Source: an uncultured Clostridia bacterium (GTDB taxonomy: Bacteria; Bacillota; Clostridia; Christensenellales; Borkfalkiaceae). From it: a DNA stretch of 64,000 bases. The translations under genes and the position numbers were made by a program. The notes below the pieces were generated by a model. That model searched no databases, was not told where the DNA came from, and was given only the letters and a program-made list of their open reading frames with translations. The stretch is taken from contig CANRGG010000003.1 of the NCBI GenBank assembly GCA_947630115.1, forward strand, positions 1-64,000. Reading direction: 5' to 3'. Below are positions 14,436-44,257 of the stretch, one piece after another (within the stretch, counting starts at the first letter, position 1; each line of letters starts with the position of its first letter).

Positions 14436-14834
14436 TCATCCTTTTCCATCCTCCATCTGTTTTTTGAGCGCTTTCAATGCCAAGGAACGCAGATTATAGA
14501 TGTTTTCCACCGAACAGCCAAGCCTTTTTGCAGCTTCATCCGAGTCGAGTCTCTCTGCAAAAAGCAATCGTAACACCTCCCTCCTCTTGGGAGGAAGCGT
14601 GGAAAACGCTGCGCGCAAAGACTCATTTTCAAATTCGAAGTTTTCAAATGATATCGCCTCATTCTGTTCTTCCGCGAATACGGTCTGTTCAATGAAGTCG
14701 AGCGGCACATCATTCGGAACGCTTTTTAATTTCCTGATATAATCGATTTTCGCTCGATCCAGCAACCTCTCCATCCAGACGGTAAACCTTGCCCTGAGTT
14801 CATCCTGTTCATTTTGCGCTTCCATTCCGCTCAT
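14436..14834 (-). CDS. Small sigma-70-like factor (region 4)
   Basis: The 132-residue protein ends in a clear sigma region 4 helix-turn-helix: LPPKRREVLRLLFAERLDSD, then EAAKRLGCSVENIYNLRS and LALKALKKQ. The N-terminal half (FTVWMERLLDRAKIDYIRKL) matches the short sigma-like proteins common on Clostridial conjugative elements, which lack a canonical region 2. The start may be the ATG at 14834 or the one at 14825, since AAGGG is closer than ideal to the first. It follows the DUF58 gene by 5 bases and so belongs to the VWA/DUF58 cluster, copy 1. It may direct transcription of that cluster; this is inference. Copy 2 has no counterpart. Confidence 0.75.
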   Translation of the reverse strand: MSGMEAQNEQDELRARFTVWMERLLDRAKIDYIRKLKSVPNDVPLDFIEQTVFAEEQNEAISFENFEFENESLRAAFSTLPPKRREVLRLLFAERLDSDEAAKRLGCSVENIYNLRSLALKALKKQMEDGKG

Positions 14835-14839
14835 GCCCT

Positions 14840-15736
14840 TTAATTTACAAGATCGGCTTGGAGCAGCTCTTTGAATACCGCCTTTTCAATGCGATCTTCC
14901 GTATCGAACGTGAGAAAGGTGATCCCGCGGGAGGCGCAGAAGGAATTGATTTTCGCAATTTCCTCTTGAACCGTTTCGCTGTATTCTTCAAGCATGGACC
15001 GCGAGATTTTAATTCGGATGTTGCGAAAGTCTTCGAGAGCGGGCGACTCCGAATCGATCAGTTGAAACCTGCCCGAATACAGCGGATCGCGCTCCTCCTT
15101 CGTCAAAACCTGTAACATCAGCACCTGCCTGCGCTTATAGAGCAGAAAATTCACCCCAGGTTTCCAATCATTGTCCGTAAAAAAGTCGGAAATGATAATC
15201 GACAAGCCGTCGTTGGTGCCGGTTTGAGGGGTTCGAGGGATCGAAGTCGCAAAGTCCGCCTCGCCCTCGAATTTGATCTTTTCAAGCTGCCCGATCGCTC
15301 CGAAAAACTTGTTCTTGCCGACAATGATCCCAAACGGATCCTCCGCTTTCCCGTCTTTCAGCAAATGGAAAGAGACTTTATCCATGTTCCTGACCGCCAA
15401 AAATCCAAGCGCGGCGGCCAGACTGATTGCATATTTTGCCTTTTCAGGATAGCTCGCCATCGAAGCGGAACAGTCGAGAAAGATCTGAATGTGCATTTGC
15501 CGCTCGTCAGTGTAGAGTTTCAGAAAGTATTTTTTCAGCCTTGCAAAGAGGTTCCAGTCGATCCGGCGGATGTCGTCGCCGAGTTCATAGTTCCGATAGT
15601 CCGCAAACTCCATGGTCTGGCCGTACTTCTTGATCTGATGTTTCCCGCCAAAGTAGCCCGTAAGGTTTGCCTGCAAATGCAGCGCCAACGTTTCGAGACG
15701 GCTGAAAAATTGATCGCTTAAAAAGTTCTCGCTCAT
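14840..15736 (-). CDS. DUF58 protein, cluster copy 1
   Basis: A 298-residue soluble protein of the DUF58 family. The hallmark block YRNYELGDDIRRIDWNLFA is intact, followed by a VWA-like fold beginning IQIFLDCSASMAS, so a MIDAS (DxSxS pattern) is retained. DUF58 proteins usually act with MoxR-type AAA ATPases and VWA membrane proteins as chaperone-like assembly complexes. No MoxR gene is present here. The start overlaps the stop of the double-VWA gene (ATGA). The closest relative in the window is the DUF58 gene at 35442-36338, with very high similarity over the full length. Confidence 0.9.
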   Translation of the reverse strand: MSENFLSDQFFSRLETLALHLQANLTGYFGGKHQIKKYGQTMEFADYRNYELGDDIRRIDWNLFARLKKYFLKLYTDERQMHIQIFLDCSASMASYPEKAKYAISLAAALGFLAVRNMDKVSFHLLKDGKAEDPFGIIVGKNKFFGAIGQLEKIKFEGEADFATSIPRTPQTGTNDGLSIIISDFFTDNDWKPGVNFLLYKRRQVLMLQVLTKEERDPLYSGRFQLIDSESPALEDFRNIRIKISRSMLEEYSETVQEEIAKINSFCASRGITFLTFDTEDRIEKAVFKELLQADLVN

Positions 15737-18618
15737 TTTGCCCCCTCCCCGAACTGCGTCTTGCGCTGCCGATAAGTCCGTACTATTTCATGCGGCCACT
15801 TGAACTTGAATTTGCGCACGGCGATATCGAGCAGCATGAAAACGATCGCCAAAATGGCAAACAATTTCTGCGGATCATAGACGATATGAATGTCCGCAAA
15901 ATAATCGAGGATGGACTCCGCGTCATAGACGAGCTTTTGGGTCGGATCCTCGCCCTCTTCGATCTCCCGCGTCGAAAGATCGACAAGCAAGGTCCGCCCG
16001 TCCGCAAAGGAGTCGGACGCCGGGTCGTACTCGCGGGAGTAGGAAAAGGCTCTGAACGTCCTGTAATAGCCGTACAGCGACCCGCTTGGAATTTCGGCAA
16101 GGCTGTTTGCGCCGTCGATCCCGAAATCAATGGGAACTTTTGCGATGGTGATTTCGTAGACCCCCTGCGTCTTGTTGAGGAAAGTAAAGCGGTTCCCGCT
16201 GAAAGACTCCTCGGAAAGGTCGAACTTTTGAGGCTCGTCATTCGGCCCATTCACAAAGGCGATGAGCTTTTTCCCCTCCTCCTCTTGAAGATGGAAGCCG
16301 TAAACGCTGATCTGCGTTCGGTAATTGTCCTCGATCACCGTCGTCGAAAAGACGTTTTCCGAATACGTCATCTTGGAAATGACGGTAGACATGATATTGT
16401 AAAGGACTTTTTTACCCGCCGTGCTCTCCAAAAATTCTTCCGACCAATAATTTTCAAGGTCGCATAGAAAGCTCCCCACTTTCCCCCGCCCGTACTTCCA
16501 CTGCGCGTACAGCGGGACATATTGCGCCCTCAAAGACACTTCAACGTCGCCGTAGCCCTTTTCAACGCTGGTAAAGAAGCCGTCCATGGTGATCTCTTTC
16601 AATGCGTCATCGGTCACGCCGTCCACGATCGTCGTGTGGTTTTGAATGGTGGGCGAATACTGTTCGGGAACGGCGCCCGAAAGCCCGTCGAGCTGAAGGT
16701 CCTCCGCCAAATAGTCGCTGATCTTCCCGATGTCGCTGCCGTCCATATAGTACGCATGGCCGCCTGCGTTTTCGGCAAGATTTTTCAAATCGTCGGTCAC
16801 CGGCCGCACGACGGAGACATAGGTGATCGTAATGCCGTAGTTTTTGTAAAACCGCTGCATCGCCGCGCCATACGAACTATAGAGATCGGCCGGCATGGAG
16901 TCCGAAAAGAACAAAATATGCTTGCGTTCCGCGCTGAGCAGCGATTGCAGCGTCTGTCCAGCCATTTCGATGGCAGGTTCGTACATGGTGCCGCCGCCGC
17001 TGTCGTTTACCACATTCCGGATCGAATTGATGATGCGGTTCTTTTGCGTCATGGGCGTCATATCGAGGCCGAAGGTGTAATGGTCCTGCAAGGTCACAAT
17101 ACCCACCTGATCGTGCGGCGACAATGCTTCGAGCGCGTCGATCGCGCCCGAGATCGCAATATTGACCGGCATGCCGTATTCGGAATCGGTCTCCATCGAG
17201 CCCGAGCGGTCGATGATGATCGCAAGCGCGACGGAGGGCGTATAGTCGGTGATCTCCACGGGCAGCATTTGCCCAAAGAGGCTCCCCTGCATATCGTCCT
17301 TATTGTAGGCATGGGCCTTGGGCACCGTTTCCCCTTTCTCGTTTTGCACCGTGACGACGTTTCCGCTTTCATCCTTTTCGACGCCGCCCACCGTAAAGAC
17401 GCCGCCGCCGTAGTCCCCGACATAGGACTCGAGCATTTTTACAAAACTTTCGGGCATGTCGCTGTTTGCAATGTTGACGAGGATCACCTCGTCAAATGCG
17501 ACAAGCGTCTTGATGTCGCTTGGAAGAGCGGCCGTTTCGTCTACTTGGACGACATGAAAGTCGATATTGACGCCGACTGCCGATCCCGTGAGGGAACTGA
17601 TAAGCTGCAGCGACTCGCCCTTGTACTTTTCGATGATGAGAATGGATGAAAATTCGTCGATGTCATATGATAGGTTCCAAAGATTGTTTTCGGGCATGGT
17701 GTCCACAGAACTTTCGATCTCAAAACAGAGTTCATGATGTCCAGGCGTTTCGAAAGTATAAGGAAAGCCGAACGTTTGACTGCTGGAAGCAAGTTGCACC
17801 CCTTTCTTTTCAACGGTTTTTACATCATTTTCGGTTTTGTCTGTCAATGTGATATCAAGCTCCCCCTCAAACGCGCTCCGAACCTCCAAGACAAAGGGAA
17901 TTTCTTCGCCCACATTGTATTTTCGGTCGGGATAGGTAACGTTTGTGATCCAGACGTCCCCTTTGTAGTTTGCAGGATAGAACGAAGCGTCGATTTCCAC
18001 CCCGTCCATGGTGATCCCTTTGACGACGTTCATCGCGTCGCGGTCGGTTTCAAGTCCGTCGCTAATCAGGACGATCTTCGAGGTCTCGGGGTGGGAAATA
18101 ATCGCTTTCCCGTCCTCTCCCCCGCTTTGATCATTCGCGGGGTCCCAGACATAGGTCAAAGCGCTCGCGATGTCGGTCGCGGTGATATCGGGAAGAGGCG
18201 CTTCGAGGTAAGTTTGATACGCTTTTTCGGGGTCGTGTTCGCCCATTTCGAGCGCCACTTGTTGGTCGAAACCGAAAGTCACGATAGACACCCGGCAGCG
18301 ATTTTCGTTGGAGACAAGAATTTCATGAACGAAGTTGTTTGCGCGCTCCTTTGCATAGCCGCTTGAAAAAGAGGCGTCGACAAGGATCACGAGTTCGTTT
18401 TGCTCATTTGGCATATCGTATGAAAACGTCATTCCAGACAAAATCCCGACGCAGAGCAAGATGACAAGGCAATGAAGAACCAGCGACAAGATACGGTTAC
18501 GGGTGCGGCGATACTTTTTCTTCATGCGAAAATACATGAAAAGCGCGAACGCGAATAAGGGAATGAGCAGGAGAAATACCCATGGGCTTACGGAAAAATC
18601 GATTTTGAAATTATACAT
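15733..18618 (-). CDS. Large double-VWA membrane protein, cluster copy 1
   Basis: 961 residues, anchored by two N-terminal helices (near residues 13-30 and 45-63) and one C-terminal helix before RKFKFKWPHEIVRTYRQRK. A first VWA-like region (ELVILVDASFSSGY) and a second with a good MIDAS (ALAIIIDRSGSMETD) flank a middle domain. In it VGDYGGGVFTVGG resembles the glutamine-amidotransferase-like fold of large BatA-type proteins. A long extracytoplasmic beta-rich part follows (VWITNVTYPDRKYNVGEE is one strand block). It is translationally coupled to DUF58 and 11 bases after the BatA-like gene. Likely the core of an envelope complex with metal-dependent adhesion domains; substrate unknown. Confidence 0.85.
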   Translation of the reverse strand: MYNFKIDFSVSPWVFLLLIPLFAFALFMYFRMKKKYRRTRNRILSLVLHCLVILLCVGILSGMTFSYDMPNEQNELVILVDASFSSGYAKERANNFVHEILVSNENRCRVSIVTFGFDQQVALEMGEHDPEKAYQTYLEAPLPDITATDIASALTYVWDPANDQSGGEDGKAIISHPETSKIVLISDGLETDRDAMNVVKGITMDGVEIDASFYPANYKGDVWITNVTYPDRKYNVGEEIPFVLEVRSAFEGELDITLTDKTENDVKTVEKKGVQLASSSQTFGFPYTFETPGHHELCFEIESSVDTMPENNLWNLSYDIDEFSSILIIEKYKGESLQLISSLTGSAVGVNIDFHVVQVDETAALPSDIKTLVAFDEVILVNIANSDMPESFVKMLESYVGDYGGGVFTVGGVEKDESGNVVTVQNEKGETVPKAHAYNKDDMQGSLFGQMLPVEITDYTPSVALAIIIDRSGSMETDSEYGMPVNIAISGAIDALEALSPHDQVGIVTLQDHYTFGLDMTPMTQKNRIINSIRNVVNDSGGGTMYEPAIEMAGQTLQSLLSAERKHILFFSDSMPADLYSSYGAAMQRFYKNYGITITYVSVVRPVTDDLKNLAENAGGHAYYMDGSDIGKISDYLAEDLQLDGLSGAVPEQYSPTIQNHTTIVDGVTDDALKEITMDGFFTSVEKGYGDVEVSLRAQYVPLYAQWKYGRGKVGSFLCDLENYWSEEFLESTAGKKVLYNIMSTVISKMTYSENVFSTTVIEDNYRTQISVYGFHLQEEEGKKLIAFVNGPNDEPQKFDLSEESFSGNRFTFLNKTQGVYEITIAKVPIDFGIDGANSLAEIPSGSLYGYYRTFRAFSYSREYDPASDSFADGRTLLVDLSTREIEEGEDPTQKLVYDAESILDYFADIHIVYDPQKLFAILAIVFMLLDIAVRKFKFKWPHEIVRTYRQRKTQFGEGAK

Positions 18619-18629: not shown

Positions 18630-20582
18630 CTACACAATTTCCTTACTTTGCAGAGCCCACTCGACGGTAGAGACAACCAGGATCGCGATGGCAAGATACA
18701 GGAAGAGAGAAATCCCAAGCTCCTTCCAGGCCTCGACTTTATCAAGCCGAATATCGAGCGCGATCATGCGGAAAAGACCACTCTCGTCTTTCGGAAAATG
18801 CACGTAGGCCTTGCACTCCTTCTGTTCCTTGTCATAGTCGAATTGGGTCGTGAAGGTATAGGTGCCGAGAAGATTCAGCGTAACTTCTGCGGGGAACTCA
18901 TTCAAAGTTTGCGCCGTTCCGAGCGGGTCCGTAACGGTCAGGGAAGCGCCCTGGCTGTTTACTTTTGTCACCTCGTCCGCTTCGAAGCTGTACTTTTCAA
19001 GCGTCTGCGGCAAATAAGTTTTGATCAGATTGTACAAAAGCTCCGTCAAATGCGTCGACGAGGGCAAGTTGGAACGGTTGAGCGAGAACGGCATAATGAC
19101 GACGGGTTGTCCGACCGTCCTGACCAGCAGCACGGGGTCGCCGTTGCAAAGCAAAATCGGCTTGAATTCGGGGCCGTAGCTCGTGATCTTCTTGTAGCAG
19201 GTCACGCCCATCTTTTCGACCGTGATGTATTGAGTGAGCGGGTGCGGCTCGGGTGATGTGAAATATTGAAGGCCCGAAAAGCTCTGCTCCCCTCCCAGCT
19301 CGATCCCGAAGCCGCTCAAATCGTCGGGATCGCTCAAAATCAGCACCCCGTCCGTCGGGTAGCTCTCCCTCGAGGTATGCTCGAAGATATAGAACTCATA
19401 GCCCGACATTTCTATTTCGCTTTGCTTGTACGCCTGTTTATATTGAATGTCGTAAACTTTCCCCATGGGGTCGCGCAGGTAATGGAAGCCGAGGTTATAG
19501 AAGATGTTCTGCTCGGTGCTGTAATATTGGACGCGAGCCTTCTCCCGTTCGCCGCCGTAAACCATAAAGGTATCATCCTCGGGAATAGAATCAAGAAGAT
19601 TTTTGAAACTTACCTTAACTTCCCGGAAGGATGAACAAAAGACTTCCTCGCTCCCGCCCACGTCGGGATCGGACGCGCGGAAATCAATGTATTGGACCTG
19701 CGAATACTCGCTGCTGTCGCTGTTGACGTCCACGGTGAGCTCTTTTGTAAGAACGGGGCAGTCCGACGCGCCGTCGCCGAGCTCGGCGCCCTCGACTTCG
19801 ACATACAGGTTATATTTCCCGGAAATCCGCCCGTACGCCCCCACGCTCACATGGAATACATACTCATTCGCCTCCAACGAAGCGACGCAGTCGAGGATCC
19901 CCAAGTTCCATTCGTTGGAAATGTTGGCAAGATTTCTGACGGTCACGGCGGTGCCGAGATTGCCATAGTCCGAACCCGAATACAAGATTACTTGTGCGGC
20001 AGGATTGACGATAAGTCGCTGCTCGGCAAGTTGGAGCGCCCCCTGCATATCCGCCGTGCCGTAAGTACATTCGAGCCCGTCAAGCGCCATAACGACCGCA
20101 GAATAGTTGTCGCTCGTCGCGTCGCTTATCACGAAATTCGCTTCCTTGCCCGCTAAAATGATGGAAAGGGTGCCCTCGTTCGTGATGAGCCACTCGTCAA
20201 TGTGCATTTTCACTTCCCGCACGGCACGCTCGAAACGGGTGGGCGAATTTTTATCGCCCGCAAATCTCGCCCGCATATTGGCGGAGCCGTCGATGATCAC
20301 GATGCGCTCCGTATCGTCATTGACAAAGCCCTCGGTAAACAGTTTGGGCTCCGCAAGGATAAACGAAAGCATCGTGAGCGCAAGCGCTTGAAAAAGGAAT
20401 ATGAGGATGTTCCGAATGGGCTGAACCGGTAACTTTCTCCTGCGCTTTCTGAGCATGACGCGCCAAATATAGGTGCTCGAAAGAAACTTCTGCTGCAAAT
20501 TCGGCTTGATGAGATAGATGAGGATCAACCCGAGAATGCTCAAAAGCCCCAATAAGCCAAGAGGCAAAATCCATTTGATCAT
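18630..20582 (-). CDS. BatA-like VWA membrane protein, cluster copy 1
   Basis: 650 residues with the aerotolerance-regulator N-terminal layout: a first helix (LPLGLLGLLSILGLILIYL), the block FLSSTYIWRVMLRKRRRKLP, and a second helix ending in AEPKLF. A VWA domain follows (IVIIDGSANMRARF, where the third MIDAS position is Asn-Met rather than Ser). A long extracytoplasmic part and a final helix (LFLYLAIAILVVSTVEWAL) complete it. BatA/BatB-like proteins form membrane complexes with DUF58 proteins. The ribosome site GGGAG lies before the start. Located between the InlB-repeat gene and the double-VWA gene. Confidence 0.85.
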   Translation of the reverse strand: MIKWILPLGLLGLLSILGLILIYLIKPNLQQKFLSSTYIWRVMLRKRRRKLPVQPIRNILIFLFQALALTMLSFILAEPKLFTEGFVNDDTERIVIIDGSANMRARFAGDKNSPTRFERAVREVKMHIDEWLITNEGTLSIILAGKEANFVISDATSDNYSAVVMALDGLECTYGTADMQGALQLAEQRLIVNPAAQVILYSGSDYGNLGTAVTVRNLANISNEWNLGILDCVASLEANEYVFHVSVGAYGRISGKYNLYVEVEGAELGDGASDCPVLTKELTVDVNSDSSEYSQVQYIDFRASDPDVGGSEEVFCSSFREVKVSFKNLLDSIPEDDTFMVYGGEREKARVQYYSTEQNIFYNLGFHYLRDPMGKVYDIQYKQAYKQSEIEMSGYEFYIFEHTSRESYPTDGVLILSDPDDLSGFGIELGGEQSFSGLQYFTSPEPHPLTQYITVEKMGVTCYKKITSYGPEFKPILLCNGDPVLLVRTVGQPVVIMPFSLNRSNLPSSTHLTELLYNLIKTYLPQTLEKYSFEADEVTKVNSQGASLTVTDPLGTAQTLNEFPAEVTLNLLGTYTFTTQFDYDKEQKECKAYVHFPKDESGLFRMIALDIRLDKVEAWKELGISLFLYLAIAILVVSTVEWALQSKEIV

Positions 20583-20599: not shown

Positions 20600-21856
20600 T
20601 TATGGTTTCATGCCGTCAAAATACCCGCTCAATGCGTCTTTGAGATCGGGAGGAAGGCTGTCGTCGTTTTCGACCGCCTGCTTTTCGGCCTCATAGTCGG
20701 TCGCGTCCTTGTAGTCGGTGGAGCCGTCAATCACGCTGTTGTTGTCGGTAGGTCCCCCCCAGCCTGCGCCGCCGCCACCGCCGCCTTCGCTCTCTTCTTT
20801 GCCGGAGTTGCTGCCTTGGTTATCTCCGCCGCCTTCACCTTCGCCTTCCCCTTTAACTTCGCCTTCTCCTTGACCTTGACCCTGGCCTTGACCTTCGCCT
20901 TCGCCCTGGCCTTCCCCTTCTCCCTCACCTTGACCTTCGCCTTCTCCTTCACCCTGTCCTTGGCCCTGGCCTTGGCCCTGGCCTTCACCTTCACCCTGGC
21001 CTTCGCCTTCTCCTTGACCTTCACCTTCGCCCTGTCCTTCGCCTTCCCCCTCGCCCTCTTGGCCTTCTCCTTGGCCGCCTTGTTCGGGCTTCTTTACAAA
21101 AACTGCGGTGACGTTCAGATCCTCTATGACGCTCCAGTCCCAGCGCTCGCTTGTCATCAAGCCGTCATCCCATTGATCGAATACATAGCCCTCTTCCGCT
21201 ACGGCAATGACGGGCGTTGCGTCCGATCCCTTTTCGATCCGCTGATAGGTTTCGCCCATCAAAGAGCCGCCCTCGCCCGCAAAATAGTAAAGTTCCACAT
21301 ACTCAATTTCTTTTTCGGGCATATAGGAGGGATTTTCTGGATCTACCGCACCCCCCGTATTTCCCGCGAACGCGAGCCGCGCGGATGTCAAAGCAGACAC
21401 CGTCGTCATGGAAATGCCGAGAATACAAACCGCCAAAAGTGCAGAGAGCATGGCTTTGGGGAGCCGGAAACGGAACATCTCGGGGTTGACATTGTTTAGT
21501 TTTTTTGTTGCGTCTTCCCGCTGCAAACGGGCGACTTCGGAGTCGTCGCTCTCCCATTCGAGCATGGTGATCATTCGCTCTTCCAATCCGAGACGGTCGA
21601 CCATGGAGGCAACCTTTTCCGCCGACGGATTGAATTTCACAAAGTAAAGCACAAAGCCCGAGCCGATCCCCGCGACTATGCCCGGAATGATCGAGCCGAG
21701 CAAAACGACAAGCGCCCCCACATGGCAGAAAAACAGAATAAAAGCCAAGACAAAGTCGACGCAAAATCCGATAAAGACCCCGCTGAGCGCCGCCTTGATC
21801 ATAGCAATCCTCTTTGCCTTTTTTTGATATTCTTTGAGAAGTTCCAGCGTTGTCAT
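20600..21856 (-). CDS. Membrane protein with InlB-type repeat and Glu/Gly/Gln tail, copy 1
   Basis: A 418-residue protein with a cytoplasmic start (EYQKKAKRIAMIK), two helices (about 25-45 and 48-70), a cytoplasmic segment, and a third helix (about 133-155). An extracytoplasmic InlB/List_Bact repeat (VELYYFAGEGGSLMGETYQR to DLNVTAVF) follows. Then comes about 95 residues of almost pure Glu, Gly and Gln, and a C-terminal segment ending SGYFDGMKP. The N-terminal half resembles DUF4175/DUF4129-like membrane partners of MoxR-type operons only in layout, so no family is claimed. The gene follows the LRR lipoprotein by 21 bases and is 17 bases from the BatA-like gene. Copy 2 is at 41563-42751. Confidence 0.75.
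   Translation of the reverse strand: MTTLELLKEYQKKAKRIAMIKAALSGVFIGFCVDFVLAFILFFCHVGALVVLLGSIIPGIVAGIGSGFVLYFVKFNPSAEKVASMVDRLGLEERMITMLEWESDDSEVARLQREDATKKLNNVNPEMFRFRLPKAMLSALLAVCILGISMTTVSALTSARLAFAGNTGGAVDPENPSYMPEKEIEYVELYYFAGEGGSLMGETYQRIEKGSDATPVIAVAEEGYVFDQWDDGLMTSERWDWSVIEDLNVTAVFVKKPEQGGQGEGQEGEGEGEGQGEGEGQGEGEGQGEGEGQGQGQGQGQGEGEGEGQGEGEGEGQGEGEGQGQGQGQGEGEVKGEGEGEGGGDNQGSNSGKEESEGGGGGGAGWGGPTDNNSVIDGSTDYKDATDYEAEKQAVENDDSLPPDLKDALSGYFDGMKP
20815..21075. repeat. Low-complexity Glu/Gly/Gln-coding tract, copy 1
   Basis: About 260 bp made of irregular 6- and 12-bp units, pyrimidine-rich on the plus strand, encoding GEGEGQ-type residues of the InlB-repeat membrane protein. Such tracts can slip in replication and change length in frame. 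Confidence 0.8.
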
Positions 21857-34895: not shown

Positions 34896-34900
34896 AAATT

Positions 34901-35373: not shown

Positions 35374-35406
35374 AAAAAGACATACAATTCGTATGCCTTT
35401 TTCAAA
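35374..35406 (-). terminator. Terminator of cluster copy 2; 33-bp repeat, unit A
   Basis: A hairpin (GGCATAC with GTATGTC on the minus strand) followed by a T-run. The whole 33 bp is identical to 44457-44489, which lies behind spoIVB on the other side of cluster copy 2, in the same orientation. Confidence 0.85.
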
Positions 35407-35441: not shown

Positions 35442-36338
35442 CTAATTAACAAGATCGGCTTGGAGAAGCTCTTTGAAGATCACTTTCTCGATCGGCTCCT
35501 CGGTGTCGAAAGAGAGGAACGTGATCCCGCGGGAGGCACAGAAATTACTGATCCCCTCGATTGTCTCTTTGACTAATTTGCTGTATTCTTCGAGCATGGA
35601 GCGGGAAATTTTCACGCGGATATTGCGGAAGTCGTCCGCGCGTGGCGACTCGGAGTCGATGAGATTTAATCTTCCCGAATACAGCGGGTCTCGCTCTTCC
35701 TTCGTCATCACCTGTATCATCAACACTTGTCTGCGCTTATAGAGCAGGAAATTCACCCCGGGTTTCCAATCTTCCTCGGTCAAAAAGTCGGAGATGACGA
35801 TGGACAAGCCGTCGTTCGTGCCCGTGTGCTGCGTTTTGGGGATTGAAGTTCCAAAATCCGCCTCGCCCTCGAATTTGATCTTTTCAAGCTGCCCGATCGC
35901 TCCGAAGAACTTATTTTTCCCGACGATGATCCCGAACGGGTCCTCCGCCTTCCCCTCTTTCAGCAAGTGAAACGACACCTTGTCCATATTTCTGATTGCC
36001 AAAAAACCGAGCGCTGCGGCAAGGCTGACTGCATACCTCGCCTTTTCGGGGATCATGCCCATGGATGCGGAACAGTCGAGAAAAATCTGAATGTGCATTT
36101 GCCGCTCGTCGGTGTAGAGTTTGAGAAAGTATTTTTTGAGCCTCGCATACAAATTCCAATCAATACGGCGGATGTCGTCGCCGAGTTCGTAGTTTCGAAA
36201 GTCGGCAAACTCCATCGTCTGTCCGTATTTTTTGATTTGATGTTTCCCGCCGTAGTAGCCCGATAAATTTGCTTGCAAGTGCAGTGCCAAGGTTTCGAGG
36301 CGGCTGAAAAATGCGTCACTTAAAAAAGAGTTATTCAT
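35442..36338 (-). CDS. DUF58 protein, cluster copy 2
   Basis: 298 residues, the same length as its copy 1 relative and alike over its whole length. The DUF58 hallmark FRNYELGDDIRRIDWNLYA and the VWA-like MIDAS start IQIFLDCSASMGM are intact, as is the shared C-terminal end KELLQADLVN. It begins 12 bases after the double-VWA gene and is followed by the copy 2 terminator; no sigma gene follows. Probably a cytoplasmic partner of the VWA membrane proteins. Confidence 0.9.
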   Translation of the reverse strand: MNNSFLSDAFFSRLETLALHLQANLSGYYGGKHQIKKYGQTMEFADFRNYELGDDIRRIDWNLYARLKKYFLKLYTDERQMHIQIFLDCSASMGMIPEKARYAVSLAAALGFLAIRNMDKVSFHLLKEGKAEDPFGIIVGKNKFFGAIGQLEKIKFEGEADFGTSIPKTQHTGTNDGLSIVISDFLTEEDWKPGVNFLLYKRRQVLMIQVMTKEERDPLYSGRLNLIDSESPRADDFRNIRVKISRSMLEEYSKLVKETIEGISNFCASRGITFLSFDTEEPIEKVIFKELLQADLVN

Positions 36339-36350: not shown

Positions 36351-39230
36351 TTACTTTCCGAACTGCATTTTGCGCTGCCGATACGTCCGAATGAGTTCGT
36401 GCGGCCACTTGAACTTGAATTTGCGGATCGCAATATCCAAAAGCCCCAACACGAGCGCAAGGATCGCAAACAGGAGCTGCGGGTCATAGACGATATGCAC
36501 GTCTGCAAAATAACTCAATAGTTTCTCCGCGTCATAGACGAGCTTTTCTGTCGAGTCGGCTTCCTCCTCGATTTCACGCGTCGAGATCGAAACGAGCAGC
36601 TCTCTGCCGTCTTGAAAGGAATCGGCTCCCGCGTCATATTCTTTGGAATAGGAAAACGCCCTGTACGCAAGGATCGAGCCGCTCACCTGAGAGTCGGGAA
36701 TATCATTGAAATTGGACACGCTGTTGATATTGAAATTTTCGGGGACTTTCACGACGATAATTTCATAGACGCCCGGCGTTCTATTCTCGAATGTAAAGCG
36801 GTTTCCGCTCACGGAGAGATCCCGAAGGTCGAACTTTTCAATGTTCTTTTCGGGTCCTCTCACCATTGCGACGAGCTTTCTGTTTGACTCCTCTTGACCG
36901 TCGAACCCGTAAATACTGACCTGAGTTCTGTAATTATCTTCGAGGATCGCAGCACTGAAAATATTTTCGGAAACTTCGGCAATTTGCGAGATCAAGTTCG
37001 TAACGACATTATGAATGATCGTACTCCCTTGATCGCTGCTTAAAAATTGTTCCGACCAATAGCCGTTCAAATCGCACAGGAAGCTGCCGACTTTTCCCTC
37101 TCCGTACTTCCACTGCGCATAGAGCGGCACATAGTCCGCCATAAGCGAAACTTCCACGTCTCCGTAGCCTTTTGCCTCCGTCGTAAAGAAGCCTTTCATT
37201 GTGATCTTGTCAAGTTCACTTTGGTTGACTCCGCTTACGATCAAGGTATGGTTCATAATCGTCGGATGGTATTCACTCGGCACTGCTCCCGAAAGTTCGT
37301 CGAAGCCGAGATCGTCTTTGAGAATATCCGAAAACTTATCCACGTCACCCGCCGAAATGTAGTACGCTTTGCCCCCGCCGTTATGCGCAAAATTTTCCAT
37401 GTCTTGGGTGAGCTGGCTCCCGATGGACATGACGGTTATTGTGATACCGTATTTTTCATGGTTCTCCTGCATGACAGAATTGTATTGGCTGAAACTATCT
37501 CCCGGATTTGAGTCAGACAAAAAGAGAATATGCTTTCTATCCGCGCCCTGAATGGTATTGAGGGTCTTGCACGCCAAATCAATGGAAGGCGCGTATCTTG
37601 TTCCCTGCCCGCCGCCGTCGGCAATGTGACGGATTGCACTGACAATCTTGGACTTCTGCTTCATGGAGGTCATATCAAGCCCCACACGGTAGTTATCTTC
37701 GAGCGACAAAACGCCTACTTGGTCGCGCGGAGAAAGTGCGTCGAGCGCGTCGATCGCGCCTTTGATCGCAACGTCGAGCGGAGAGATCCCCATTCCACCC
37801 CGATCCTCGTCCATAGAACCCGAGCGGTCGATAATAATGGCAAGCGCAACGGGGGGCGTGTAGTCGACGGCATTGACAGGAAGCATTTTTTCAAACGTCG
37901 TCCCCGCCATGTCCTCTTTATTATAGGAATGTGCCATGGGAACATCCTCTCCCGCGGGATTTTTCCCCATGACGACGTCTCCGTTTTTATCCTTCTCTAC
38001 GCCGCCCACGGTAAAGAGTCCCCCGCCGTAGTCGCTCACATAGCTTTCAAGCAGATCCTCAAAGCCGTTCGGCATATCCTTATGGGCAATGTTCACCAAG
38101 ACGACTTCGTCGTACATCGCAATCGCTTCCATATTCTTGGGAAGCTCGTTGCTTTCGATATTCACAACCGTGACGCTCAGGTATTCCGCGTCGATGGATC
38201 CCTTGATCTTTTCGACAAGCGCAGCCGACTCTCCGTTATACTTCTCCACGACAAGCATCGAGGTATATTCTTCGATCTCAAAATAGGAATAATACAAATT
38301 GTTCTCGGTGAGAGAGTCCCCCTCGCTCTCGATGGTAAATTTAAGATCATGATGTCCCGGGGTCGAAAAGGCGTAGTTGAAATTGATGGTCTGCTCCCCG
38401 AGGACGAGGCTCAAATTCTCATGCGCGTCGGACTGTTCGGAATATTCTCCGATGTCCGTAAATTTCAAGGAAACTTTTCCCTGATAGGTGCTTTTGAGGG
38501 TCACCTCGAACGAAACTTCCTCTCCGAGGGAATATTTGCGTTCGGGATAGCTGACGTTCGTGATCCACACGTCACTCTTGAAAGAGGCGGGATAGAACGA
38601 AGTGTCGATCTGTACGCCGTCCATGGAAATTCGCTTTGCAACACTCTGCGCGTCGCGGTCGGTTTCAAGTCCGTCCGAAATGAGTAAAATCTTCGCAGTA
38701 TCGGGATAGTGGATGATCGCCTCATCCTCGCCGCCGCTTTGATCGAGCGTAGGGTCCCAAACATAAGTGAGCGCACCCGCAATATCGGTTGCCGTAATAT
38801 CGGGACTCGGGGCTTCGAGAAATTTTTGATACGCCGATTCGGGGCTGTGCTGCCCCATGGGCAAGACGACCTTTTGGTCATATCCGAACGTCACGATAGA
38901 CACATTGCTTCTTCCGTCGTTCGCGGTCAGAACGTCATGCACCAAGTCATTCACTCTGTCCTTATAGTTTGCGCTGCTGTAAGAAGCATCGACTAAAATG
39001 ACAAGCTCATTCTCTTGATTGGGAAGATCATAGGAGAAATTGATCCCCGACAGGATGAGAATACACAGCGTTGACACAACACAGTGAAGGATCAAGGAGA
39101 TCACCTTGTTGCGGTTATACCGAAACCGTCTCGGTGAACGGAAAAAGAAGAAGAGAGCGATTAAGAAGGCGGGAATGATGAGAAGCAGCAGCCACCCGCT
39201 CACTGAAAAGTTGACTTTGAAATTCGACAT
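36351..39230 (-). CDS. Large double-VWA membrane protein, cluster copy 2
   Basis: 959 residues from the ATG at 39230 (MSNFKVNFSVSGWLL); the longer frame overlaps the BatA-like gene and lacks a start signal. The plan equals copy 1: two N-terminal helices, first VWA-like region (ELVILVDASYSSANY), amidotransferase-like middle (VSDYGGGLFTVGG), second VWA with MIDAS (ALAIIIDRSGSMDED), extracytoplasmic beta region, and one C-terminal helix before RKFKFKWPHELIRTYRQRK. The membrane-proximal ends are most alike between the copies, the middle less so. That fits a conserved assembly platform with changed ligand-facing parts; this is inference. Confidence 0.85.
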   Translation of the reverse strand: MSNFKVNFSVSGWLLLLIIPAFLIALFFFFRSPRRFRYNRNKVISLILHCVVSTLCILILSGINFSYDLPNQENELVILVDASYSSANYKDRVNDLVHDVLTANDGRSNVSIVTFGYDQKVVLPMGQHSPESAYQKFLEAPSPDITATDIAGALTYVWDPTLDQSGGEDEAIIHYPDTAKILLISDGLETDRDAQSVAKRISMDGVQIDTSFYPASFKSDVWITNVSYPERKYSLGEEVSFEVTLKSTYQGKVSLKFTDIGEYSEQSDAHENLSLVLGEQTINFNYAFSTPGHHDLKFTIESEGDSLTENNLYYSYFEIEEYTSMLVVEKYNGESAALVEKIKGSIDAEYLSVTVVNIESNELPKNMEAIAMYDEVVLVNIAHKDMPNGFEDLLESYVSDYGGGLFTVGGVEKDKNGDVVMGKNPAGEDVPMAHSYNKEDMAGTTFEKMLPVNAVDYTPPVALAIIIDRSGSMDEDRGGMGISPLDVAIKGAIDALDALSPRDQVGVLSLEDNYRVGLDMTSMKQKSKIVSAIRHIADGGGQGTRYAPSIDLACKTLNTIQGADRKHILFLSDSNPGDSFSQYNSVMQENHEKYGITITVMSIGSQLTQDMENFAHNGGGKAYYISAGDVDKFSDILKDDLGFDELSGAVPSEYHPTIMNHTLIVSGVNQSELDKITMKGFFTTEAKGYGDVEVSLMADYVPLYAQWKYGEGKVGSFLCDLNGYWSEQFLSSDQGSTIIHNVVTNLISQIAEVSENIFSAAILEDNYRTQVSIYGFDGQEESNRKLVAMVRGPEKNIEKFDLRDLSVSGNRFTFENRTPGVYEIIVVKVPENFNINSVSNFNDIPDSQVSGSILAYRAFSYSKEYDAGADSFQDGRELLVSISTREIEEEADSTEKLVYDAEKLLSYFADVHIVYDPQLLFAILALVLGLLDIAIRKFKFKWPHELIRTYRQRKMQFGK

Positions 39231-39240
39231 ACCTCTCCTC

Positions 39241-41211
39241 CTAAATCCCCTTGAACTGCAAGCACCACTCGACGGTAAACAGGACAAGCATCGCAATTGC
39301 AAAATACAGGAAAAGATCTTCGCCGAGCTCTTCCCAAACTTCCGTGTTGTCGAGTTTCATATTCATAGCTTCCACGTCGAAGAGACCGCTTTCCGCAGCC
39401 GGAATATGGACGAACGCTTTTCTGACTTCGGCTTCCTTGTCATAGGAAAAATTCGTCGTGAACGTATAAGTCCCAAGCTCCGTAAGCGTCACCGTCGCAG
39501 GAAATTCGGTTAAAGTGTCCGCTTTTCCATTCGGGTCTGTCATGGTAACCGTCGTTCCCTTGCAGTTGACGTTCACTTCCTCGTCCGCCTCAAACTCATA
39601 ATTGTCGAGGGTCAGCGGCATAAAGTATTGAATTAAATTGTAGCAAAATTTGGTAAGATTTGTTCCCGCGGATAAATTCGACAAGTTGAGCGAGAAGGGC
39701 ATGACGACGATGCGCTCGGTTTCTGTTTTCTTCACGAGCATCACGGGGTCGCCGCCACAGAACAAGATCGGGACAAAACTCTCGTCATAGGACGTGATCC
39801 TTCGATACGCCGTCACTCCCATCGTGTGCGGGTCGATGTATTGAAGGAGCGGGTGCGCGTCTCCCGCCTCGAAATATTTGAGACCGTTAAACGTGACGCT
39901 GTCCCCGAGTTCCACGCCGTATGCGCTCAAATCGTTGGGGTCGCTGAAAATGAGCACCCCGTCCTTCGGCGCATTGCCGCTCTGTATATTCTGCGGAAGG
40001 TTATGCTCGAAAATATAGAAGTCGTGCCCCTCGTTTTGCACTTCACTCAGGGCATAGGCACGATTAAACTGAATCTCGCGCGTTTTGCTCATGGGGTCGC
40101 GCAGATACTGAAAGCTGAGATAGTAGAAGATATTCGGTTTGGAACTGTAATATTGGATTTTTACCTTATCCTTCACCCCGCCGTAGACCTTAAACTCGTT
40201 GTCCTCGTCAATGGAATCCTCTAAATCGACAAAGCCGATCGACGCCTCCGCATAGGAGGAAAAGTACCAATCCTCCTGACCGCCGATTGCGGGGTCGGTC
40301 GCGCGGAGAGTAATGGTCTGAATGTCCGAATAGTCCAAATTGTCCGAATTGACGTCAAATGCGACTTTTTTATAGAGTTTGGGAAAATCGAAGGTCTTGT
40401 CCTCTCCGTTTTCCGCGCCCTTGATCTCAATATATAGGTTCTTTTCGAGAGAGATCCTGCCGAACGCCCCCACCTCTACATGGAATACATACTCGCTCTC
40501 CTCGATCGAAACCGTGCAGCCCAAAACTGCGATATTCCACTCATTCTGAATGTTGGCAAGGTTTCTGACGGTCACCGCAGAGCCGAGATTGCCCAAATCC
40601 GTTCCCGAATAGACGAAAATTTTTGCCGCAGGATTGATAAAGAGACGCTCCTCGGCAAGGTTCAAAGCCCCTTGGATATCCGCCGTACCATAGGAACATT
40701 TTAAGCCATCGAGGGTATGGACTACGTCCGTATATTCCTCTTTCGTGGCATCGGCGATCGCATATTCCGCCTCCCGTCCCGCAGTAATGATAGAAATAGT
40801 CCCGTCGTCGTCCATGAGCCACTCGTCGATATGCGCCTTCACTTCCCGCACCGCCCTGTCAAAACGGGAGAACGAGGTGGGATCTCCCGCCGTATGGGCA
40901 AGCATACTCGCGGACGAGTCGATGATGATGATCTTCTCGGTCTCGTCATTGACGAACCCCTCCGAGAACAGTTTCGGCTGCGCCATTAAAAGCGCAAGAG
41001 AGGTAAACGCCAACGCCTGACACACGAATACCAAAATATTCCGTATCGGCTCGATGGGAAGTTTCTTTCTCTTACGCTTCAAGAGCTGCCGCCATAGGAC
41101 AGTGCTTGTTATAAATTTCTGTTGGTACTTGGGTCTTATGATATAAATCAAGATGAGGACGAGGATCCCCAAAAGACCGAGTAGCCCCAGCGGCATTAAC
41201 CATTTGATCAT
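39241..41211 (-). CDS. BatA-like VWA membrane protein, cluster copy 2
   Basis: 656 residues. N-terminal helix LMPLGLLGLLGILVLILIYI, the block FITSTVLWRQLLKRKRKKLP, second helix ending AQPKLF, then a VWA domain with a complete MIDAS start (IIIIDSSASMLAHT), unlike copy 1, whose third position is changed. A last helix (LFLYFAIAMLVLFTVEWCL) closes the protein. It is separated from the InlB-repeat gene by a 335-bp element with terminal inverted repeats, where copy 1 has only 17 bases. Confidence 0.85.
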   Translation of the reverse strand: MIKWLMPLGLLGLLGILVLILIYIIRPKYQQKFITSTVLWRQLLKRKRKKLPIEPIRNILVFVCQALAFTSLALLMAQPKLFSEGFVNDETEKIIIIDSSASMLAHTAGDPTSFSRFDRAVREVKAHIDEWLMDDDGTISIITAGREAEYAIADATKEEYTDVVHTLDGLKCSYGTADIQGALNLAEERLFINPAAKIFVYSGTDLGNLGSAVTVRNLANIQNEWNIAVLGCTVSIEESEYVFHVEVGAFGRISLEKNLYIEIKGAENGEDKTFDFPKLYKKVAFDVNSDNLDYSDIQTITLRATDPAIGGQEDWYFSSYAEASIGFVDLEDSIDEDNEFKVYGGVKDKVKIQYYSSKPNIFYYLSFQYLRDPMSKTREIQFNRAYALSEVQNEGHDFYIFEHNLPQNIQSGNAPKDGVLIFSDPNDLSAYGVELGDSVTFNGLKYFEAGDAHPLLQYIDPHTMGVTAYRRITSYDESFVPILFCGGDPVMLVKKTETERIVVMPFSLNLSNLSAGTNLTKFCYNLIQYFMPLTLDNYEFEADEEVNVNCKGTTVTMTDPNGKADTLTEFPATVTLTELGTYTFTTNFSYDKEAEVRKAFVHIPAAESGLFDVEAMNMKLDNTEVWEELGEDLFLYFAIAMLVLFTVEWCLQFKGI

Positions 41212-41227
41212 AAATAAACCTCATTTC

Positions 41228-41562: not shown

Positions 41563-42751
41563 TCACGGCTTTACTCCGTCCAAATATCCGCTGAGCGCGT
41601 CTTTAAGTTCGGGCGGGAGAGTATCATCGTTCTCCAGGTTTTCCTTCTCGGTTTCATAATCGACCGCGTCGCTGTAATCCGTCTTTCCGTCGATCACAGT
41701 ATTGTCGTCAAGTTGTCCGCTTGCAGACGCTCCGCCGCCGCCTTGAAGTTCTCCCTCAGGATCGCCCTCGGACTCTCCACCGTTGCCGTCTCCTTCACCG
41801 TCACCCTGTCCTTCGCCGCCTTGACCTTGTCCGTCACCTTCGCCTTGACTTTCTCCGCCGCCTTCTCCTTGTCCTTCTCCGCTACCTTCTCCCTCTCCTT
41901 CGCCTTGACCTTCGCCCTCACCTTCTCCTTCGCCACTGCCTTCACCCTCTTCGCCGTCTTCTCCCGCAGACGAATCGGTCTGGTTTTTGAGGAAGATCGC
42001 CGTCACGGTCATATTGTCCATGACGTTCCAATCCCAACGCTCGCTCGTCATGACGCCGTCGCTCCACTCTGCGAAAGAATAGCCCTCGTCCGCGACTGCC
42101 ACAACCGCAGTCGCGTCCTTGCCCTTTTCAATGCGTTGATAGGTTTCGCCCTGCACAGTTCCGCCCTCAGACGCAAGGTAATTGATCTCCACATACTCCG
42201 TCTGCTCTTCCGTCGGATTATCGGGGTTATTCGGATCAACGGGACCCACAATTTCATTCCCCGGCGAAAGCTACCGCCGCCGAGAGCGCGGATACCGTCG
42301 TCATAGAAATGCCGAGCGTTGCGACCACGGCAAGCAGGACGATCGCCGCCTTGGAGATTTGAAATCTGAATTGATGAGGACTGACGGAGGAAAGTTTCTT
42401 CTTTGCGTCCTCCCGTTGAAGCTGCGCGATGTTGGAATCTTCATGCACCATTTCATACATGGTGATGACGCGCTCTTCGAGTCCGAGCTTGTCGATCATT
42501 TGCGCGACCGATTTTGTCGTGGGCTTAAACCGTTTCAAGTACAAGATCGTCCCCACGGCAATTCCGCCGACAAGTCCCACGCCAAGCGAGAGCAGCAGCA
42601 TCATCGCAACGCCGACATTGACAAACCACAAGATCAACGCCATCACAAAATCAAGCGCAAATCCGAAAAAAACTCCGCAAAGGATGGATTTTCTGAGCGC
42701 AAGCTGCTTTGCTTTTTTGGTATATTCTTGAATCAAACGTTCAATCTCCAT
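41563..42751 (-). pseudogene. Membrane protein with InlB-type repeat, copy 2, with a frameshift
   Basis: Counterpart of the gene at 20600-21856. The first frame (42751-42254) encodes the start (EYTKKAKQLALRKSI), three helices and SALSAAVAFAGE, then stops. The second frame (to 41563) continues with GPVDPNNPDNP, the InlB-type repeat (VEINYLASEGGTVQGETYQR) and a Glu/Gly/Gln tail ending SGYLDGVKP. Removing one base of the G4 run at 42259-42262 joins them as AFAGNEIVGPVDP, in line with AFAGNTGGAVDP in copy 1. It may be a true lesion, a phase-variable run, a programmed shift or a sequencing error; all residues on both sides remain well conserved. Confidence 0.8.
41810..41950. repeat. Low-complexity Glu/Gly/Gln-coding tract, copy 2
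   Basis: About 140 bp of 6-bp-like units encoding GEGEGQ-type residues, shorter than the roughly 260-bp tract of copy 1. Confidence 0.75.
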
Positions 42752-42754
42752 TGT

Positions 42755-44257
42755 TTACTCCTCCCCCTGATAGTTGTATCTGATCGGCATTTCTTTCGGT
42801 TCCCCTCTGATTTCTCCAAGCCAAAGACCATGGATCCCTATCTTTTTCCAATCCTCTTCGGAGCCCTTGTAGCAAATCTCTTTTAAGGAATCGCAATCCT
42901 TGAACGTGTACATACCAATCGTGGTAATGTTCTTGCCGAGCACCACTTTGCTCAAAACTCTGCACCCGTCAAAGACGCCTCTTCCCATATCCTCTAACGA
43001 ATCGGGCAGAACGATACTTTTAAGAGAAGTACAGTTCAGAAACACTTGATCGGCAAAAGTTTTCATTTGGCTATTACCGAAATTGACATCCGTTAAGTTT
43101 TTGCAGCTATCAAACGCATCGAATCCAATGCTTTTGATACTGTCGGAAAATGTGACTTTTTTTAAGGTATGACATCCGATGAACACACAGTTCGAAATAT
43201 CTTCGAGATCGCTCGGGAAAGTAACTTCCGTTACAGGCTCATCGTGAAAGTACAAATTATGCGCTACATAGAGCGGGTTCGATAACGTGCCATTGAATGA
43301 AATTTTACACCAAGCGTCAAGATCGGTTACGTTCACCCTATTGAGCGAATTGCAATATATAAAGTTCATTTCGCCAAACGAGTTTACGCTTTTGCCTACG
43401 GTAAGCTCGGTGAGCGCGCTGCACCCATAAAATACATAACGTCCTATTGTCGTTACTTTGTCGGGAATCGTGAGTTTTTGCAGGGAGCGGCAGTTGTAGA
43501 AGGTTTTATAATATATCGCCTCCAAGTTTTCAGGTAAGTGGATTTCTCTCAATGACGAGCACTCCTCAAATGCCTGCGTGTCTACCAATGTTACGGAATC
43601 CGGAATTGTGATAGAAGTCAAAGATTTACAATTAGAGAATGCCGCATAGCCTATCGCTGTTACAGAATTGGGAATCGTGATACTGCTGATCGAGCTGCCC
43701 GCAAAAGCATTATCGCCAATTTTTATGACAGGTAACGTTTTGTAAGTACTCGGGATCACAACACTTCCCGAAGTTGACTTTCCCGCAGAAACGGAGTATC
43801 CCGGCTCATCGAAATCGAGGGACAAAGTATACGTCAAGCCGTCCGCTCCCTGTTCGGGTTCTCCCTCTTCCCAGCCCGGGTTGTCGGGATTGTCGGGCGT
43901 ATCGGGATTGTCGGGCGTATCGGGATCGTCGGGATTGTCGGGATTTTCCGGCGTGTCGGGATTATCGGGATTGTCAGGGTTATCAGGGTTATCAGGGTAA
44001 TCTGGGTTCACGGGATTATCGGGACTTACGGGACCGTCCTTGACATAGCCGCACAAAGTACACTTATTGTCAAGGAAGTTGTGTTCGGACTTTAATCCTA
44101 TTTCAATATCACCGCAGGTCGCAATTCTCCAATGATAGGTATCATCATAGAGCCAGCCGTCGGCATAGGAATGTTTGTGCTCTTCGCAAGCGGAAAAGCA
44201 CGATAAAGACGCCATGACCATAGAGATTGCCAACCATTTCCGGATTTTTTGCTTCAT
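42755..44257 (-). CDS. BspA-like leucine-rich-repeat lipoprotein, cluster copy 2
   Basis: A 500-residue surface lipoprotein with signal peptide MKQKIRKWLAISM and lipobox FSAC (Cys24). A Cys/His segment (HSYADGWLYDDTYHWRIATC to TLCGY) follows, then a linker of Pro-Asp-Asn triplets (about residues 75-125, made of 9-bp DNA units at 43876-44020), then BspA-type LRR_5 repeats (for example ISSITIPNSVTAIGYAAFSN). Start and Cys/His segment are nearly the same as in copy 1 while linker and repeats differ, as expected for a diversifying binding surface. First gene of copy 2, ending 3 bases before the next. Confidence 0.9.
   Translation of the reverse strand: MKQKIRKWLAISMVMASLSCFSACEEHKHSYADGWLYDDTYHWRIATCGDIEIGLKSEHNFLDNKCTLCGYVKDGPVSPDNPVNPDYPDNPDNPDNPDNPDTPENPDNPDDPDTPDNPDTPDNPDNPGWEEGEPEQGADGLTYTLSLDFDEPGYSVSAGKSTSGSVVIPSTYKTLPVIKIGDNAFAGSSISSITIPNSVTAIGYAAFSNCKSLTSITIPDSVTLVDTQAFEECSSLREIHLPENLEAIYYKTFYNCRSLQKLTIPDKVTTIGRYVFYGCSALTELTVGKSVNSFGEMNFIYCNSLNRVNVTDLDAWCKISFNGTLSNPLYVAHNLYFHDEPVTEVTFPSDLEDISNCVFIGCHTLKKVTFSDSIKSIGFDAFDSCKNLTDVNFGNSQMKTFADQVFLNCTSLKSIVLPDSLEDMGRGVFDGCRVLSKVVLGKNITTIGMYTFKDCDSLKEICYKGSEEDWKKIGIHGLWLGEIRGEPKEMPIRYNYQGEE

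What the first reader, a model, noticed from the sequence alone, without database searches (positions are those of the whole stretch)
14436..44257. Two paralogous 9-kb clusters of VWA, DUF58, InlB-repeat and LRR envelope proteins without MoxR
The same five genes in the same order occur twice (23425-14840 and 44257-35442): BspA-like lipoprotein, InlB-repeat membrane protein with Glu/Gly/Gln tail, BatA-like protein, double-VWA protein, DUF58 protein. DUF58/BatA sets normally include a MoxR AAA ATPase; none is in either cluster. The LRR lipoprotein and InlB-repeat protein suggest a surface-binding complex assembled by the VWA proteins. I know of no characterised system of this composition.
Basis: partly seen in the sequence, partly recalled or inferred. 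Interest (0 to 1): 0.85.

Follow-up and report, generated by a model that had tools for sequence, protein, structure and literature searches.

The report
MoxR-less satellite copies of VWA–LRR cassette
This bacterium carries at least nine copies of a membrane gene cassette that in related genomes is usually built around the motor protein MoxR, and the two copies here lack the motor gene but keep the part predicted to grip it, so they likely borrow a motor encoded elsewhere to handle different surface proteins.

Summary
Two five-gene sets of the same order (LRR lipoprotein, F2, BatA-VWA, double-VWA, DUF58) lie at 23425-14840 and 44257-35442, with no MoxR in or beside either; in B the InlB gene is split by a frame change. 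The reading changes in three ways. (1) The genome has a MoxR, in a canonical cluster on another contig. (2) The pair is part of an expansion: nine double-VWA copies here and about seven in each of two sister species, against none to three in the other 100 genus genomes examined. (3) The canonical form, LRR–F2–MoxR–DUF58–BatA–VWA2–LRR, recurs in five families of the order, so this is a variant of the known MoxR/DUF58/Bat theme. MoxR-less cassettes are conserved between species (dN/dS below 0.3), and their DUF58 keeps 88-99% of sites fixed in MoxR-linked DUF58. I favour satellite cassettes, each with its own LRR protein, served in trans by MoxR. Trans action is inferred: of seven genomes with uncut MoxR-less cassettes, three show no assembled MoxR, and assembly gaps are only one explanation. 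New variant of a known kind.

The parts
21878..23425 (-). A1: BspA-type LRR lipoprotein, 515 aa, lipobox FSAC
   Evidence: PF13306 230 bits; lipobox pattern
20600..21856 (-). A2 (F2): membrane protein, 3 predicted TM helices, InlB repeat, Glu/Gly/Gln tail, conserved C-terminal helix
   Evidence: PF18998; alignment of 25 relatives; model pLDDT 76
18630..20582 (-). A3 (F3): BatA-like N-terminus plus VWA, TM 2+1, MIDAS-like DGSAN
   Evidence: VWA_2 35 bits, BatA 20.7 bits below cut-off
15733..18618 (-). A4 (F4): VWA plus predicted GATase1-like fold with a second VWA nested in it, TM 2+1, MIDAS DASFS and DRSGS
14840..15736 (-). A5 (F5): DUF58, no TM helix predicted, MIDAS DCSAS
   Evidence: PF01882 99 bits
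14436..14834 (-). sigma-70 region-4 protein next to A5; probably not part of the cassette
   Evidence: PF08281 43 bits; no similar ORF flagged next to the orthologous cassettes
42755..44257 (-). B1: BspA-type LRR lipoprotein, 500 aa
   Evidence: 43% identical to A1; lipobox FSAC
42254..42751 (-). B2, N-terminal piece of split F2
   Evidence: 53% identical to A2 over 165 aa; 91% to the G170 ortholog
41563..42249 (-). B2, C-terminal piece of split F2 (InlB repeat and tail)
   Evidence: 89% identical to the G170 ortholog
39241..41211 (-). B3 (F3): BatA-like VWA protein, MIDAS DSSAS
   Evidence: 59% identical to A3
36351..39302 (-). B4 (F4): double-VWA/GATase-like protein; the true start is likely near 39230
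   Evidence: 58% identical to A4; match to A4 begins at 39230
35442..36338 (-). B5 (F5): DUF58
   Evidence: 85% identical to A5

Best explanation
Clusters A and B are two of at least nine copies in this genome of a DUF58/Bat-type VWA membrane cassette; they lack the MoxR gene of the canonical cluster and are likely driven in trans by a MoxR encoded elsewhere. Predicted working: F2, F3 and F4 form a complex in the cytoplasmic membrane, with the positively charged first loops of F3 and F4 inside and the VWA, GATase-like and InlB domains outside. The soluble DUF58 protein is the cytosolic adaptor that docks on a MoxR AAA+ ring. ATP-driven remodelling passed through DUF58 to the membrane VWA proteins would mature, load or display the BspA-type LRR lipoprotein of the same cassette. 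The canonical cluster encodes motor, adaptor, membrane module and clients together. Satellite cassettes keep module and client, mostly keep the adaptor, and drop the motor; some (C19 in this genome) drop the adaptor too. Shown: gene content, orders, copy numbers, conservation. Inferred: topology, complex, trans action, LRR as client.
For: Nine double-VWA genes and one assembled MoxR in the genome; that MoxR heads MoxR-DUF58-BatA-VWA2-LRR-lipoprotein. The same order with MoxR recurs across families of the order. Of 101 places with a double-VWA ORF of 600 codons or more, 60 have MoxR, 19 have none and are not cut, 22 are cut. Compact cassettes form one double-VWA clade with MoxR-bearing members in it. 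Orthologous MoxR-less cassettes in sister species are under purifying selection; in A, B and C13a DUF58 has the lowest dN/dS (0.04-0.07), and LRR is highest in A and B, second in C13a. Twelve MoxR-less DUF58 keep 72-81 of 82 sites fixed (97% or more) in 43 MoxR-linked DUF58, no fewer than three MoxR-bearing compact ones (71-73). LRR distances track F2, F3 and F4 (r 0.94) more than DUF58 (0.77; fewer cassettes). All five genomes with uncut cassettes lacking both MoxR and DUF58 hold DUF58 elsewhere. In NorQ/NorD the VWA partner puts a finger in the MoxR pore and its MIDAS serves the target (PMC9976466 passages, PMC13036017 abstract).
Against: No interaction was tested. Of seven genomes with uncut MoxR-less cassettes, G125, G172 and G229 (93-97% complete) have no assembled MoxR; G094 (95%), with a cassette where F2 directly precedes F3, has neither MoxR nor DUF58. 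Gaps are plausible: of 23 cut loci I picked, 12 begin inside MoxR or DUF58; real absence is not excluded. Retention of fixed sites is not special to DUF58: F3 keeps 25-29 of 29 in the same MoxR-less cassettes (F4 61-74 of 80). In C1 the rate contrast of DUF58 and LRR is small, and in C19 and C6 that of LRR. The r values are also what linkage alone would give. In this genome C38 and C23 are cut near the MoxR position, so the MoxR count could be one to three. DUF58 has no sequence relative among solved structures, so docking is by analogy.
Confidence: 0.45

Rival explanations
1. The satellite cassettes have become independent of MoxR: DUF58 and the VWA proteins act as a static adhesion or sensing complex around the LRR lipoprotein, with no AAA+ motor.
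For: Six uncut cassettes, in five genomes, lack both MoxR and DUF58; G125, G172, G229 and G094 show no assembled MoxR; fixed sites are kept in F3 as well as in DUF58, so general constraint would do.
Against: Low dN/dS of DUF58 in MoxR-less cassettes A, B and C13a; all five genomes with uncut DUF58-less cassettes hold DUF58 elsewhere; G000, G033, G068 and G170 also hold MoxR.
Confidence: 0.31
2. Another AAA+ protein took over the MoxR role for the satellites.
For: A second, sub-threshold PF07726 match exists in the genome (C5:66636-67007, 23.8 bits).
Against: It is below the family cut-off of 27 bits, was not followed up, and nothing links it to the cassettes.
Confidence: 0.09
3. Ordinary gene amplification with decay: extra copies are by-products of duplication and are being lost.
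For: B2 is split in this genome; A and B lie 12 kb apart and about 1 kb apart in G125; gene orders are permuted between copies.
Against: Orthologous gene pairs of six cassettes have dN/dS of 0.04-0.29; the B F2 ortholog is one ORF in G170; A and B orthologs occur in three species.
Confidence: 0.09
4. The absence of MoxR is an assembly artefact.
For: Cut loci in this group often end at MoxR/DUF58.
Against: A and B lie inside one contig; the same MoxR-less orders were assembled in two sister-species genomes.
Confidence: 0.03

Closest known systems
Bat (BatI) / MoxR-proper operons: MoxR, DUF58, BatA/BatB VWA (Bacteroides, Borrelia BB0170-BB0176, Riemerella)
   Same: DUF58 next to BatA-type membrane VWA proteins; the canonical cluster in this genome and its relatives has MoxR directly before DUF58
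   Different: A and B lack MoxR; no BatD or BatE/TPR family matched among the six proteins of cluster A scanned; the second VWA protein carries a predicted GATase1-like fold; F2 and BspA-type LRR lipoproteins are part of the unit; many copies per genome
NorQ/NorD, RavA/ViaA, CbbQ/CbbO (MoxR plus VWA co-chaperone)
   Same: Proposed principle: MoxR ring, VWA adaptor, remodelled target
   Different: Here two of the VWA proteins are predicted membrane proteins with their VWA domains outside, and motor and adaptor genes are separable from the rest
MoxR-vWA ternary conflict systems (PMC7159879)
   Same: MoxR-VWA core with varying further components
   Different: No VMAP, iSTAND or FtsH family matched in the Pfam scan of cluster A; the paper's main text has no occurrence of DUF58 or leucine-rich
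BspA-type LRR surface lipoproteins
   Same: LRR_5 repeats and lipobox
   Different: Here tied in gene order to a VWA/DUF58 module

Membership tests
MoxR/DUF58/Bat operon | MoxR AAA+ gene in the cluster | tested here: not met
   None in A or B; the only strong match in the genome is in cluster C6.
MoxR/DUF58/Bat operon | DUF58 gene | tested here: met
   A5 PF01882 98.9 bits; B5 85% identical to A5.
MoxR/DUF58/Bat operon | BatA-type N-terminus plus VWA | tested here: inconclusive
   A3: VWA_2 35.3 bits over cut-off, BatA PF07584 20.7 bits under cut-off 25.9.
MoxR/DUF58/Bat operon | BatD, BatE (TPR) genes | tested here: not met
   No such family among the six proteins of cluster A scanned with Pfam and NCBIfam. 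Cluster B was judged by identity to A.
BspA-type LRR lipoprotein | LRR_5 repeats | tested here: met
   A1: PF13306 230 bits.
BspA-type LRR lipoprotein | Lipoprotein signal | tested here: met
   Lipobox FSAC near the N-terminus of A1 and B1; a pattern match only.
DUF4175 (for F2) | PF13779 match | tested here: inconclusive
   2 of 25 F2 members, best E 8.9e-4; none for A2 itself.
GATase1_like (for F4) | PF07090 fold | tested here: inconclusive
MoxR-VWA co-chaperone pair (NorQ/NorD type) | Physical contact of the VWA/DUF58 protein with a MoxR ring | not testable with these tools
   No multimer prediction was available.

The most novel reading that the evidence does not exclude
A hub-and-spoke envelope machine: a MoxR engine encoded in one cluster serves a repertoire of interchangeable membrane VWA cassettes, each specialised for its own LRR surface lipoprotein, so a bacterium diversifies its surface by adding motor-less cassettes.
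Probability: 0.36. Interest if true: 0.72.

Novelty: new variant of a known kind. Interest (0 to 1): 0.5.

Why it matters
What MoxR/DUF58/Bat membrane clusters act on is, to my knowledge, open. A constant neighbour, an LRR protein on both sides of the canonical cluster in five families of the order, names a concrete candidate client. The motor-less satellites are a natural experiment: which parts can be lost, which are kept, and which diversify together. If the trans model is right, one motor supports many surface-protein modules, a layout I know of for no MoxR system (recalled). The listings of seven paper searches (most lists capped at 8-15 papers) showed none that joins MoxR or DUF58 with BspA-type LRR proteins.

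Tried and rejected
That the genome lacks MoxR: rejected. A two-copy reading: rejected. That A and B are recent repeats: rejected; they are 43-59% identical outside DUF58 and have orthologs in other species. That the sigma-like ORF 14436-14834 belongs to the cassette: no support in relatives. F2 as a clear DUF4175 member: only weak hits. The fold search with the F2 model gave no match at E 0.001 or better. DUF58 against solved structures gave no match better than E 0.05. A MoxR end in the 74 bases before the C38 DUF58: nothing recognisable, so C38 cannot be told. A strict order of loss (MoxR, then DUF58): two loci cut inside MoxR (G108:C7, G353:C1) have MoxR next to F3 without DUF58. MoxR kept uniform within a genome: seen in two of five genomes compared (G353 99.1% over 455 bases, G108 88.6% over 492), not in G170 (74%) or G033 (74%), and G020 lies between (81%) (some pairs could not be compared because I gave the script only part of the locus). 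Fixed-site retention as a DUF58-only signal: F3 shows it too. These last two checks made me lower my first odds (best explanation 0.50 to 0.45, novel case 0.40 to 0.36) and raise three rivals a little. Papers seen: PMC13036017 outline and abstract; PMC9976466, PMC7159879, PMC5700661 and PMC11834572 passages; all others search listings only.
Full report
Check. The window is the first 64 kb of an 85-kb contig of a draft genome of 1.61 Mb in 54 contigs, 94% complete. On the minus strand, set A (23425-14840) and set B (44257-35442) encode the same five proteins in the same order: a lipoprotein with BspA-type LRRs, a protein with three predicted TM helices, one InlB repeat and a Glu/Gly/Gln tail (F2), a BatA-like VWA protein (F3), a protein with two VWA domains (F4), and DUF58 (F5). 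Identities between A and B: LRR 43%, F2 piece 53%, F3 59%, F4 58%, F5 85%. B's F2 is split into two ORFs by a frame change; the ortholog in G170 is one ORF of 393 codons, so this is either a young lesion or a sequence error.

The genome as a whole. A MoxR search of the whole genome finds one match, C6:221-1351 (PF07726 208.6 bits, and a second, sub-threshold match of 23.8 bits elsewhere). It is followed by DUF58, BatA-VWA, double-VWA, a 1082-codon LRR ORF and a second lipoprotein: a third cluster of the same kind, with MoxR. The double-VWA protein has nine copies, and DUF58 eight matches. Orders in this genome: A and B LRR-F2-F3-F4-F5; C1 F5-LRR-F2-F3-F4; C13 two sets in tandem, LRR-F2-F5-F3-F4 and F5-LRR-F2-F3-F4; C19 LRR-F2-F3-F4 without DUF58; C6, C38 and C23 F5-F3-F4-LRR, with C38 and C23 cut just upstream of or inside DUF58. 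So six cassettes lack MoxR where they stand, one has it, and two cannot be told.

Relatives. In a family sample of 81 genomes, DUF58 of this type is found in 31 and F2 matches in 40, some through the InlB repeat or the tail alone. In the genus the double-VWA protein is in 68 of 103 genomes; three stand out: G000 with nine, G125 with seven and G170 with eight matches, two of which are probably halves of one gene. The other 100 have none to three. In the order 107 of 297 genomes match, many through the second VWA alone; full-length matches occur in eight families (f1, f3, f4, f6, f18, f19, f29, f32). Reading neighbourhoods gives one recurring order, LRR–F2–MoxR–DUF58–BatA–VWA2–LRR, in f1, f3, f19, f29 and f32, often followed by a second lipoprotein. 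In f4, and in part of f1 and f3, F2–MoxR–DUF58–BatA–VWA2 has no flagged LRR directly beside it. I chose these loci by match, so counts are not frequencies. Of 101 places with a double-VWA ORF of at least 600 codons (shorter, cut ones dropped), 60 have MoxR (58 with DUF58), 19 have no MoxR and are not cut (13 with, 6 without DUF58; G000 six, G125 five, G170 four, and one each in G033, G068, G172 and G229), and 22 are cut by an end of the sequence held. Among the cut ones, G017:C46, G094:C2 and set B of G125 have F2 directly before F3 and so also lack MoxR there.

History. In the double-VWA tree (quick search, SH-aLRT only) the compact cassettes form one clade (20 rows, 99) next to C6 and its G170 ortholog; it includes MoxR-bearing cassettes MoxR-F5-F2-F3-F4 in G121 and G151 and MoxR-F5-LRR-F2-F3-F4 in G170. 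So MoxR was likely present at its base and lost more than once (inference). A and B have orthologs in G170 and G125. In G170 one cassette, B, lies between the genes that flank the A-to-B region here; in G125 A and B are about 1 kb apart and B has no DUF58. So A, B and the 12-kb stretch between them mark a recombining locus. DUF58 of C13b groups with canonical DUF58 while its double-VWA gene groups with the compact clade, a sign of adaptor exchange.

Selection. Orthologous pairs of six cassettes have dN/dS of 0.04-0.29 (one LRR pair of C13a that is not orthologous, 26% identical, is left out). DUF58 is lowest in A, B, C13a and C6 (0.04-0.07) and, by a small margin, in C1 (0.171). LRR is highest in A, B, C1, C19 and C6 (0.15-0.29), by a small margin in C19 and C6, and second in C13a. 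MoxR and DUF58 of C6 are 94% identical to their G170 orthologs while F3, F4 and LRR are 71-73%. Of 82 DUF58 sites fixed in 43 MoxR-linked rows, twelve MoxR-less DUF58 keep 72-81, and three MoxR-bearing compact ones 71-73. Loss of the neighbouring MoxR therefore did not visibly relax DUF58. But F3 of MoxR-less cassettes keeps 25-29 of 29 fixed sites and F4 61-74 of 80, so retention alone does not point to MoxR. Distances among 14-16 compact cassettes correlate at 0.92-0.98 among LRR, F2, F3 and F4, and among 11-12 at 0.77-0.89 with DUF58. Linkage alone would give high values; the lower figure for DUF58 fits an exchangeable adaptor but is not proof.

Mechanism. In NorQ/NorD the VWA partner reaches into the MoxR pore, and its MIDAS is needed for the target, not for MoxR binding (PMC9976466; PMC13036017 abstract). 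By analogy, DUF58 would be the cytosolic adaptor, F2, F3 and F4 the membrane arm, and the LRR lipoprotein the client. Satellites would share the motor. Against: of seven genomes with uncut MoxR-less cassettes, G000, G033, G068 and G170 have MoxR and G125, G172 and G229 have none assembled; G094 has neither MoxR nor DUF58. A gap is plausible: of 23 cut loci I picked, 5 begin inside MoxR, 7 inside DUF58 and 3 within 100 bases upstream of DUF58, and MoxR copies inside one genome can be nearly identical (G353 99.1% over 455 bases; G108 88.6% over 492), which breaks assemblies. But MoxR copies of G170 and G033 are only 74% identical, and DUF58 of C6, C38 and C23 in this genome 67-72% over the main stretches, so the cause of the breaks here is unknown.

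Verdict. This is a new variant of the MoxR/DUF58/Bat kind: amplified, motor-less and tied to LRR lipoproteins. None of the papers listed in seven searches (lists mostly capped) joins MoxR or DUF58 with BspA-type LRR proteins; that library lacks most subscription papers.

Noticed in passing
window 42249-42254: The F2 gene of set B changes frame between its two halves; an intact ortholog exists in a sister species. Lesion or sequence error cannot be told.
   Followed up: partly
window 23864-26958: Run of short overlapping ORFs, one with a partial, sub-threshold HipA-like match; looks like gene remnants.
   Followed up: no
window 27019-35383: Iron-dependent repressor, two ABC genes with their own membrane domains and an ECF-type transporter set lie between A and B; in G125 A and B are about 1 kb apart.
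   Followed up: partly
L049:9430-13294 (G000:C24): A sigma-70 family factor, an F2 paralog and a Beta_propel (PF09826) protein form a cluster with no VWA gene flagged; the first 158 bases of contig C6 are 97.5% identical to the end of this F2 gene.
   Followed up: partly
window 41212-41562: Long gap between B2 and B3; 97 bases of it are 97% identical in G170, so it may carry a signal.
   Followed up: no
L126 and L127 (G353): Two MoxR pieces in one genome are 99.1% identical over 455 bases while the other matched stretches are 66-84%; suggests homogenisation of MoxR there.
   Followed up: partly
L044:11183-12079 (G000:C13): DUF58 of one MoxR-less cassette groups with canonical DUF58 in the tree, unlike its VWA neighbour; suggests adaptor exchange.
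   Followed up: partly
L170 (CANRPC01, named as a Bacilli MAG): A MoxR-bearing F2-MoxR-DUF58-F3-F4 cluster in a genome labelled Bacilli; wider spread or a mislabelled bin.
   Followed up: no
L164 (JAFLVP01, isolate HAN108): A further MoxR-less start of a cassette, LRR-F2-DUF58-F3, cut by the contig end; not counted among the 101 places.
   Followed up: partly
G000:C5:66636-67007 (L002): Sub-threshold PF07726 match in an 813-codon frame; probably another AAA+ protein, not examined.
   Followed up: no
window 44507-47311: SpoIVB-type peptidase gene next to a RecN-like ORF (name recalled from sequence), right beside set B; the SpoIVB neighbour is conserved in G170.
   Followed up: no
window 1-270: Three tRNA genes (Phe, Thr, Tyr) at the contig start.
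   Followed up: no
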